This document shows, piece by piece, positions 5,890 through 64,000 of a stretch of DNA of 64,000 nt (within the stretch, counting starts at the first letter, position 1; every line of letters starts with the position of its first letter). The stretch is from Bacteroidales bacterium (GTDB lineage: Bacteria > Bacteroidota > Bacteroidia > Bacteroidales > P3): the NCBI GenBank assembly GCA_017439185.1, contig JAFRTM010000014.1:88580-152579 (forward strand), read 5' to 3'. The notes under the pieces were generated by a model. It was not told the DNA's origin. It was given only the letters and a program-made list of their open reading frames with translations, and ran no database searches. A program made the position numbers and the translations under genes.

Positions 5890-7137
5890 CTAATCAGCAT
5901 CCATAACCAATCGCACCGACTGTCCCATGTATCTGTAGTTATATGTCACATACAAATCGTTGTTGAGGAAATACAAGTACCACGCCCCATTAGATGTGGT
6001 ATAGGTGGAAGACCAATAGTGTGCGGCAGTCCCTGCGTTGCGCACGGAAGTGCCTTGACGGTAGCCAGACGCCGGAAGGAACATGCAGCCAGCATTCTGC
6101 AACATTGCCCATTGTTCTAAAGTATAGACATTTGTACTGAAACCCAATCTTATATCATTCACGCCTGTCGGAGCGGTAATACTCGCCGGATGAGTGTAGT
6201 TGTCAGGGAATATCACAAGTCCTGCTGTTCCATTTACTGTCACTTTCACAAATCTTACAGAATCGTAACCCAACGTACTAACCGTATTACGGCTGAACAA
6301 CAGATAATTCCACTCCGCTTTCGTCAAAGTACGCCACATTCCCGCCTGATTACCTCCGTTAGATATAGGATTATATACACCCCAATCGCAATTGGCATAC
6401 TCGCCAGTCAAGTTACTACCTGGATAGTAATCGCTATTTGTTGTACTTGAGGACCATGGTTGATAAGCGGGCCTTCCAAAGTAACAACCACTCGTCCCCC
6501 AACCGAAGAGGTCTATCCAACCGCTATATTCGGAAGAAATATTGGCATTGTCAGCACCAATATAGTCATATTGATGTTCAGCAAAACGCCATGTGCCGGA
6601 AGAAGCCTGATATTGCAAATTCCCTCGAGAAAAACGCACAGTATGACTTGCGGCCACCGTAAACACCGCGTTGGATGCCCCGTTTAGGTCGAATCCGTCA
6701 GCACTGTCGCCACCGCCTGGATTGTCAGGATCATCAGGATTGTCGGGGTCTTGAGGATCGTCCGGATCGTCTGGGTCATCTGGATCTTGTGGATCGTCTG
6801 GATTATCCGGGTCGCTACTTCTTTCGACTACCGTCACTCTGCACATGTCACTCCTGCTACCTGCAAACACTGTAATTATACAATCCCCCACCGCCACGGC
6901 CGTTACCAAGCCATTACCACTGACCGTAGCAACCGACGTGTTGTTGCTTTTCCATACCAAATCTTGCGGCGCAGCATCTGGCGTCACCACGGCAGAAAGT
7001 TTATAAGTATTCCCTACCACAATCACCGCTTCCGACGAATTCATTTTCACGTTTTCCACTTCCACAGCATCGGGCTTACAACTCCACACCATCATGGCCA
7101 ATAGCCCAACGGCCACCATTGCAAATACGCTTCTCAT
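5890..7137 (-). CDS. Lipoprotein: Big_2 Ig-like domain plus C-type-lectin-like domain (paralogue 1 of 3)
   Basis: 415 residues. The signal peptide ends in a lipobox-like VWSC with Cys20. Residues about 28-105 form a bacterial Ig-like (Big_2) domain with the hallmark SVATVSGNGLVTAVAVG. A long Asp-Pro-rich linker (about 110-150) is encoded by a 9-bp tandem repeat. The C-terminal 260 residues contain RFSRGNLQYQAS, GMWRTLTKAEW, YWSSTY and GQSVRLV motifs. These resemble the FISUMP/formylglycine-generating-enzyme-like C-type-lectin fold used for binding at cell surfaces. It is the last gene of a tandem array of three. The function is probably surface binding; the ligand is unknown. Confidence 0.8.
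   Translation of the reverse strand: MRSVFAMVAVGLLAMMVWSCKPDAVEVENVKMNSSEAVIVVGNTYKLSAVVTPDAAPQDLVWKSNNTSVATVSGNGLVTAVAVGDCIITVFAGSRSDMCRVTVVERSSDPDNPDDPQDPDDPDDPDDPQDPDNPDDPDNPGGGDSADGFDLNGASNAVFTVAASHTVRFSRGNLQYQASSGTWRFAEHQYDYIGADNANISSEYSGWIDLFGWGTSGCYFGRPAYQPWSSSTTNSDYYPGSNLTGEYANCDWGVYNPISNGGNQAGMWRTLTKAEWNYLLFSRNTVSTLGYDSVRFVKVTVNGTAGLVIFPDNYTHPASITAPTGVNDIRLGFSTNVYTLEQWAMLQNAGCMFLPASGYRQGTSVRNAGTAAHYWSSTYTTSNGAWYLYFLNNDLYVTYNYRYMGQSVRLVMDAD
6719..6808. repeat. 9-bp tandem repeat encoding the Asp-Pro linker
   Basis: Ten 9-bp units of the form ggatcgtct / ggattgtca encode DPD/DPQ/NPD tripeptides in the lipoprotein linker on the minus strand. The third lipoprotein (8340-9542) has about five such units (9163-9207) and the middle one none, so the tract changes length in frame. 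Confidence 0.85.
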
Positions 7138-63707: not shown

Positions 63708-63737
63708 GCACTCAAACACATTTCATACCATAACAAA

Positions 63738-63771
63738 AAAAACGGGAACTCCCTTTCGGAAATTCCCGTTA
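63738..63771 (-). terminator. Intrinsic terminator of the rRNA operon
   Basis: On the minus strand aacgggaa pairs with ttcccgtt around an inner tccgaaaggga stem-loop, followed by eight T residues. It lies 8 bp after the 5S 3' end, a classic rrn terminator, so the 5S gene is transcribed from the right. Confidence 0.9.
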
Positions 63772-63778
63772 TAAAAAT

Positions 63779-63981
63779 GGGCGGCGACTTACTTTTCCAC
63801 AAACTAGTGCAGTATCATCAGCGAGGACGGGCTTCTGCCTGGCTCCGCAGGAGACACGACCTGTGACTTCATGTCACAAACTTCTCTGTTGTCGGCATAG
63901 CCGACGCCTACGGCTCGGAATGGGAAGAGGTGAGCTGTGGCCTGTGCCCTTGCGGCACAAACACCGACTCTATAACCATCC
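63779..63981 (-). rRNA. 5S rRNA with three insertions
   Basis: On the minus strand the canonical blocks occur in order: GGATGGTTATAGAGTCGGTG, CTCACCTCTTCCCATTCCG, AACAGAGAAGTT, AAGCCCGTCC, then TGATGATACTGCAC and GTAAGTCGCCGCCC. Between them lie extra segments, in plus-strand coordinates about 63934-63960, 63891-63915 and 63835-63878. Each contains a hairpin (TGTGCC/GGCACA, GTCGGC/GCCGAC, TGTGAC/GTCACA). Without them the gene would be about 108 nt, normal for 5S. It is the last gene of an rrn operon whose 16S and 23S genes lie beyond 64000. Confidence 0.85.
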
Positions 63982-64000
63982 AAAACAAAAAAAAGAGCAC

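What the first reader, a model, noticed from the sequence alone, without database searches (positions are those of the whole stretch)
63779..63981. 5S rRNA gene interrupted by three hairpin-forming expansion or intervening segments
Seen directly: Bacteroidales 5S core sequence on the minus strand is split by about 27, 25 and 44 extra bases, each holding a perfect 6-bp stem. Removing them leaves about 108 nt. In the E. coli 5S fold, the first and third sit on the two strands of internal loop B and the second in hairpin loop C, near the uL5 contact. The first segment and the first part of the third look alike (TTGTGnC-loop-GnCACAGG), so they may descend from one inserted element. Expansions of 5S are known only in a few lineages, for example Halococcus morrhuae; three in one bacterial 5S would be exceptional. 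They may be kept in the ribosome, or cut out and leave a fragmented 5S. A good rrn terminator follows, so the gene looks expressed.
Basis: partly seen in the sequence, partly recalled or inferred. Interest (0 to 1): 0.9.

Follow-up and report, generated by a model that had tools for sequence, protein, structure and literature searches.

The report
Hairpin-riddled spare 5S rRNA gene
A gut bacterium carries, at the end of a ribosomal RNA operon, what is most likely a spare 5S rRNA gene broken up by hairpin inserts, at least one of which comes from a short repeat that a relative also carries inside ordinary protein genes; spare 5S copies of this kind are known from other bacteria, but the repeat hints at where such extra pieces come from.

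Summary
A Bacteroidales-type 5S core (107 nt, 4 substitutions from a relative's intact 5S) is split by 28, 24 and 44 nt. A second copy in the same genome has the same inserts plus a fourth (68 nt). The window ends at a contig end, and the 19 bases just upstream of the 5S look like an rrn-type terminator tail. In four same-genus genomes a decorated 5S visibly lies behind a first 5S and its terminator. So this is most likely a distal second copy, not the primary 5S. Stepanov & Fox 2021 describe such insert-bearing, terminator-preceded 5S remnants, and expanded 5S with up to three segments, in other taxa. Insert 3 ends in 29 nt of a palindromic repeat (107 matches in 33 of 120 genus genomes, control 0). 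In a relative this repeat sits in frame inside protein genes, including RimO, as Rickettsia palindromic elements do. The decorated copies I read share four loop sites in varying combinations. Two relatives carry a loop-C insert in the first 5S behind the 23S, so expanded 5S in ribosomes is not excluded. New taxon and a likely source for one insert; known kind.

The parts
63779..63981 (-). decorated 5S gene (107-nt core plus three inserts)
63934..63961 (-). insert 1 (28 nt), site A: 5' strand of loop B; stem TGTGCC/GGCACA
63891..63914 (-). insert 2 (24 nt), site B: loop C; stem GTCGGC/GCCGAC; its pattern gives 19 matches in 14 of 120 genus genomes, 9 of the 19 being 5S copies
63835..63878 (-). 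insert 3 (44 nt), site C: 3' strand of loop B (GAAGTT^AAGCC)
63835..63863 (-). right-hand 29 nt of insert 3 = right part of a dispersed palindromic repeat of the genus
63982..64000 (-). tail of an rrn-type terminator just upstream of the decorated 5S (GTGCTCTTTTTTTTGTTTT); its hairpin is cut off by the contig end
   Evidence: a near-identical tail follows the 5S on C22 and lies between first and decorated 5S in G085
63735..63770 (-). intrinsic terminator downstream of the decorated 5S
   Evidence: by reading

Best explanation
It is a second, distal 5S gene at the end of an rRNA operon, lying behind the operon's primary 5S and that gene's terminator. Short palindromic sequences, at least one of them a repeat that circulates in this genus, have inserted into its loops. 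Shown: the decorated core, two such copies in the genome, the terminator tail upstream, the arrangement in four relatives, and the identity of part of insert 3 with a dispersed repeat. Inferred: that an intact primary 5S lies upstream in this genome (not assembled), that the copy arose by tandem duplication of [5S + terminator], that it is little transcribed and not needed in ribosomes, and that it gains and loses hairpins at four loop sites because selection on it is weak. Such copies could pass an insert to primary 5S genes by gene conversion, which would explain the loop-C inserts in the primary 5S of two relatives.
For: The window ends at the contig end; both contig ends of this genome that carry the gene (C26, C22) start with GTGCTCTTTTTTTTGTTTTGG and share exactly 141 nt, then differ. 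That leader differs from the primary 5S leaders I read but resembles the terminator tail after the C22 5S and the one between the first and the decorated 5S in G085. G079, G074, G085 and G023 show first 5S - terminator - decorated 5S. Repeat of insert 3: 107 matches in 33 of 120 genus genomes at <=3 mismatches, reversed-pattern control 0. G110 and G076 carry longer forms of it at the same 5S site with the same right boundary. Helix I has 1 of 8 pairs broken in C26 and 2 of 8 in C22; in the distal copies of G079, G023 and G074 helix II keeps 5, 4 and 5 of 7 pairs. Published precedent: PMC7812874 Results.
Against: The upstream primary 5S of this genome is not in the assembly. The core is well kept (4 substitutions from G079's intact 5S; helix II as paired as in that 5S and helix III intact in C26 and C22), so it could still fold as a 5S, and unlike the published remnants it keeps both ends. 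It has its own terminator. Two relatives have a loop-C insert in the first 5S behind the 23S. Only insert 3's right part is clearly a dispersed repeat; for insert 2 about half of the matches are 5S copies, and insert 1 was not found dispersed. Read-through of the upstream terminator is not excluded.
Confidence: 0.74

Rival explanations
1. Functional expanded 5S: the gene is transcribed, the three hairpins stay in and project from the ribosome.
For: Inserts sit only in loops (placed by hand); core differs from G079's intact 5S by 4 substitutions; the first 5S behind the 23S in G058 and G081 carries a loop-C insert. Positions 34-37 of loop C are among the least obstructed in the bacterial ribosome according to PMC7812874.
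Against: Terminator tail upstream; the same paper holds sites 29-30, 42-43 and 57-58 blocked by uL18 or uL5, and I did not place our sites A and C in that numbering; helix I mismatches; helix III of the G058 primary copy keeps only 2 of 4 pairs counted.
Confidence: 0.13
2. Intervening sequences: inserts are cut out (for example by RNase III), leaving a fragmented 5S, as in many 23S genes.
For: Hairpin inserts in loops, the form known for 23S intervening sequences (recalled); PMC7812874 also raises excision.
Against: Stems of 6-7 bp are short for RNase III (recalled); no transcript data; terminator tail upstream.
Confidence: 0.04
3. The decorated distal 5S units have become a structured RNA of their own (5S-derived RNA with its own terminator).
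For: Decorated copies recur in several species, some with terminator and away from a visible first 5S in what looks like a shared neighbourhood (G009, G076, G110).
Against: Insert content differs between species in presence, length and sequence; no promoter was tested; the 203-nt fold is no better than shuffles (z -0.82), though an intact 5S is no better either (z 0.17).
Confidence: 0.05
4. Assembly or binning artefact.
For: Both copies lie at contig ends with a 141-nt overlap, where assemblers stop at repeats.
Against: Two distinguishable copies with different sequence downstream, and same-site inserts in other assemblies of the genus.
Confidence: 0.02

Closest known systems
5S remnants with large insertions at distal rrn ends (Stepanov & Fox 2021, PMC7812874; Peptococcaceae, Pseudoalteromonas)
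   Same: Usually behind the normal 5S at the distal operon end, each preceded by a putative terminator, large insertions in a 5S-like core, some inserts nearly identical to those of expanded 5S genes
   Different: Bacteroidales ('Bacteroid' occurs 0 times in that main text); both ends of the core kept here; a dispersed repeat of the genus matches part of one insert
Expanded 5S rRNAs (Halococcus, Thermoanaerobacterium and others; same paper)
   Same: 1-3 base-paired expansion segments of 13-109 nt
   Different: Here no evidence of expression; terminator tail upstream; four recurrent sites in different combinations
Rickettsia palindromic elements (passages of review PMC2229807; original papers not seen)
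   Same: Short palindromic repeats in frame inside protein genes and inside RNA genes (tmRNA, M1 RNA)
   Different: Sequence homology not tested; other phylum; shorter (about 47 bp against 105-146 bp); in 5S genes
CGTC/GTAG-tagged REPs (passages of PMC3733652)
   Same: Short palindromes; CGTC type reported in Bacteroidetes and some REPs inside ORFs; insert 2 contains CGTCGGC...GCCGAC
   Different: Membership not tested; no RAYT transposase looked for

Membership tests
5S rRNA (RF00001) | Matches the covariance model | tested here: not met
   No hit at gathering score or at E<=10 with inserts in place; the core without inserts was not run through Infernal
5S rRNA (RF00001) | Core helices I, II, III form | tested here: met
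   7/8, 6/7, 4/4 pairs in C26 against 8/8, 6/7, 4/4 in G079's intact 5S (strands set by hand, helix III counted over 4 pairs, helices IV and V not counted)
Distal 5S pseudogene with insertions (Stepanov & Fox) | Preceded by a terminator | tested here: met
   Terminator tail at 63982-64000 by likeness to two full terminators; its hairpin is cut off by the contig end
Distal 5S pseudogene with insertions (Stepanov & Fox) | Lies downstream of a normal 5S | tested here: inconclusive
   Not assembled in this genome; seen in G079, and in G074, G085, G023 with the first 5S cut or shortened at its 5' end
Distal 5S pseudogene with insertions (Stepanov & Fox) | Lacks one or both terminal parts of 5S | tested here: not met
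   Both terminal parts present, with 1-2 mismatches in helix I
Expanded functional 5S | Expressed and found in ribosomes | not testable with these tools
   No RNA data
Rickettsia palindromic elements | Sequence homology to an RPE family | not tested
   Only the way of life is compared
Rickettsia palindromic elements | In-frame insertion in conserved protein genes | tested here: met
   G002 RimO has in-frame stretches that 21 other RimO proteins lack (G009 has shorter insertions at two of the places); two carry the repeat. This is in a relative, not in the window's genome

The most novel reading that the evidence does not exclude
In this Bacteroidales genus, selfish coding palindromes invade 5S rRNA loops, and the expanded 5S are expressed and built into ribosomes, so that cells hold a mixed population of ribosomes with plain and multi-hairpin 5S; distal 5S copies serve as the nursery from which inserts pass to primary genes by gene conversion.
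Probability: 0.12. Interest if true: 0.82.

Novelty: new member of a known kind. Interest (0 to 1): 0.45.

Why it matters
How expansion segments get into rRNA is open. Here a mobile-looking palindromic repeat, its copies in protein genes, its copy in spare 5S genes and insert-bearing primary 5S genes can be seen within one genus, so the route from selfish repeat to rRNA expansion can be tested. It also warns that the standard 5S model misses such genes.

Tried and rejected
Absence of an intact 5S as evidence that this is the only 5S: rejected, because the search found no 23S in the assembly either. Pattern for a site-D insert with an 18-48 nt gap found 0 of 119 genomes; the gap was too short for the known copies, so this says nothing. 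Minimum-free-energy folding as a test of the core: uninformative, since the intact 5S of G079 does no better than shuffles; a 70-nt stretch meant for insert 4 only partly covered it and gave z -0.31. Scan of genome contigs for loop-C inserts: of 16 stretches, by my reading, 4 are Bacteroidales decorated 5S, 1 is a Cyclobacteriaceae 5S-like copy, and 11 are not inserts of this kind (4 Nitrosomonas 5S variants, 3 Ignavibacteria with a normal or N-bearing 5S, 4 matches outside 5S). A weak 5S hit in G081:C9 (32 bits) did not look like a 5S when read. An open frame through the repeat is weak evidence by itself, since the repeat is open in several frames; hence the RimO comparison. Literature: word searches for 5S with pseudogene, insertion or intervening sequence and Bacteroidetes/Bacteroidales, and for palindromic repeats with Bacteroidales/Bacteroidetes, showed no report of this case in their listings; most subscription papers are not held.

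Full report
WHAT IS THERE. On the minus strand at 63981-63779 lies a 5S gene whose core of 107 nt is split by three inserts of 28, 24 and 44 nt. The nearest intact 5S that I compared, the first 5S of same-genus genome G079, differs from the core by four substitutions, plus two single-base gaps that depend on where the insert borders are drawn. Rfam's 5S model does not find the gene.

CONTIG ENDS. The window's end is the end of contig C26. A second contig, C22, also ends with a copy: the same three inserts, two base differences in the 5S, and a fourth insert of 68 nt at GTT^TGTGG in loop D. The two contig ends are identical for exactly 141 nt and then differ. 141 is a usual largest word length of a metagenome assembler (recalled), so both contigs probably stop at a stretch shared by both copies. 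The searches found no 23S and no intact 5S in the assembly.

WHAT LIES UPSTREAM. Both contigs begin GTGCTCTTTTTTTTGTTTTGG, the last two bases being the start of the core. The primary 5S leaders that I read in the genus look different. But the terminator after the C22 5S ends GTGCTCTTTTTTTGTTTTGGGTGG, and in G085 the terminator between the first and the decorated 5S ends GTGCTCTTTTTTTTATTTTTGGTGG. So a terminator, and by inference a first 5S, most likely precedes.

RELATIVES. In G079 the whole order is visible: intact 5S, terminator, decorated 5S with inserts at sites A and B, terminator. In G074 and G085 the first 5S is cut by the contig start; in G023 the first 5S lacks its 5' end. Site combinations read: G079 A+B; G074 A+D; G023 and G043 A+B+D; G076 A+B+C; G110 A+B+C+D; this genome A+B+C (C26) and A+B+C+D (C22). 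G085, G096 and G075 carry further decorated copies, and G009, G022 and G044 pieces of them. I read only a selection of the matches (103 of 120 genomes matched; its list was cut), so I give no total. Exact loop-C pattern: 5 of 120 genus genomes; this undercounts, as it needs unmutated flanks. In two of these five, G058 and G081, the insert sits in the first 5S behind the 23S 3' end, by reading, and intact 5S genes exist beside it (one found in G058, two in G081). Of four helix III pairs counted, G058 keeps 2 and G081 keeps 3. By position and contig length, G079, G023, G058 and G081 are the records RGIG9971 (yak reticulum), RUG061, RGIG3228 (goat reticulum) and RGIG10259 (yak rumen), all titled Bacteroidales.

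WHERE THE INSERTS COME FROM. The last 29 nt of insert 3 match a palindromic repeat with 107 matches in 33 of 120 genus genomes at up to 3 mismatches, none for the reversed pattern (this genome has 3, two of them the 5S copies). Insert 2's pattern gives 19 matches in 14 of 120 genomes, control none; 9 of the 19 are 5S copies that I read, 2 (G008) lie outside 5S at contig ends, 8 were not read, so its dispersal is less sure. Insert 1's hairpin motif was found, in the loci in hand, only in the two 5S copies of this genome (there also as the start of insert 3) and in a few loose matches that share no flanks. The fuller repeat is about 47 bp (TTTGCTCC...CAGGCAG) and in G002 often lies between short direct repeats. 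In G110 and G076 longer forms sit at site C of a decorated 5S with the same right boundary as insert 3.

THE SAME REPEAT IN PROTEINS. In G002 the repeat lies inside long open frames. The six frames that I scanned (five of G002 and one of G022) each have a Pfam domain: RimO-like radical SAM, glycosyltransferase, methyltransferase, helicase/HRDC, TonB receptor, DUF58. The repeat is open in several frames, so the frames alone prove little. RimO was compared with 21 others: 22 of the 25 genomes searched had a match at E<=1e-30; 18 others were aligned (two I had left out, one the script dropped), and these three. The first and second extra stretches of G002 RimO are absent from these 21, apart from a short insertion in G009 at the first place; the third, near the C terminus, is absent too, G009 again having a shorter insertion there. 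The first and third carry the repeat. The T. maritima RimO structure also lacks the first stretch. G009, G010 and G001 have small insertions of their own elsewhere in RimO. This is how Rickettsia palindromic elements behave, which are also known from tmRNA and M1 RNA genes (passages of PMC2229807). REPs inside ORFs, and CGTC-type REPs in Bacteroidetes, are also in print (passages of PMC3733652).

WHAT IS KNOWN. Stepanov & Fox 2021 (PMC7812874; abstract, Results and Discussion read; its table and supplements not seen) list 89 expanded 5S with 1-3 segments, and describe 5S-like sequences with large insertions, usually behind normal 5S genes at distal operon ends, each preceded by a putative terminator, likely not transcribed. 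Those lack one or both ends; ours does not. 'Bacteroid' does not occur in the main text. So the kind is known and the taxon is new against that paper. The link to a repeat that also sits in proteins did not turn up in my searches.

VERDICT. A real, likely silent, distal 5S copy decorated by hairpins, at least one of them from a dispersed palindromic repeat; ordinary as a kind, useful as a case. The two insert-bearing primary 5S genes keep the stronger claim, expanded 5S in ribosomes, open.

Noticed in passing
L070:519-2198 minus (G002:C17); also L062, L063, L066, L068 (G002) and L075 (G022): A ~47-bp palindromic repeat lies in frame inside protein genes of same-genus genomes (RimO, glycosyltransferase, TonB receptor and others), as Rickettsia palindromic elements do; RimO of G002 carries three extra in-frame stretches.
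   Followed up: partly
L061-L077, e.g. L063:640-740: The repeat is often flanked by short direct or tandem repeats (GAGAATT, GCGTTAGT, GATTGCTT), which look like target duplications or preferred landing sites.
   Followed up: no
L096 (Cyclobacteriaceae MAG PL23a_bin.46), about 7067-7107 minus: A 5S-like copy with extra bases in loop C lies directly upstream of an intact 5S, the reverse order of the Bacteroidales case.
   Followed up: no
L046 / G023:C22:142628-142737: The first 5S behind the 23S lacks its 5' helix I strand, while the decorated second copy keeps both helix I strands.
   Followed up: partly
G009:C12:61394, G076:C31:48013, G110:C51:9778: Decorated 5S copies lie in what looks like one shared neighbourhood (similar sequence just upstream) rather than visibly behind a first 5S.
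   Followed up: no
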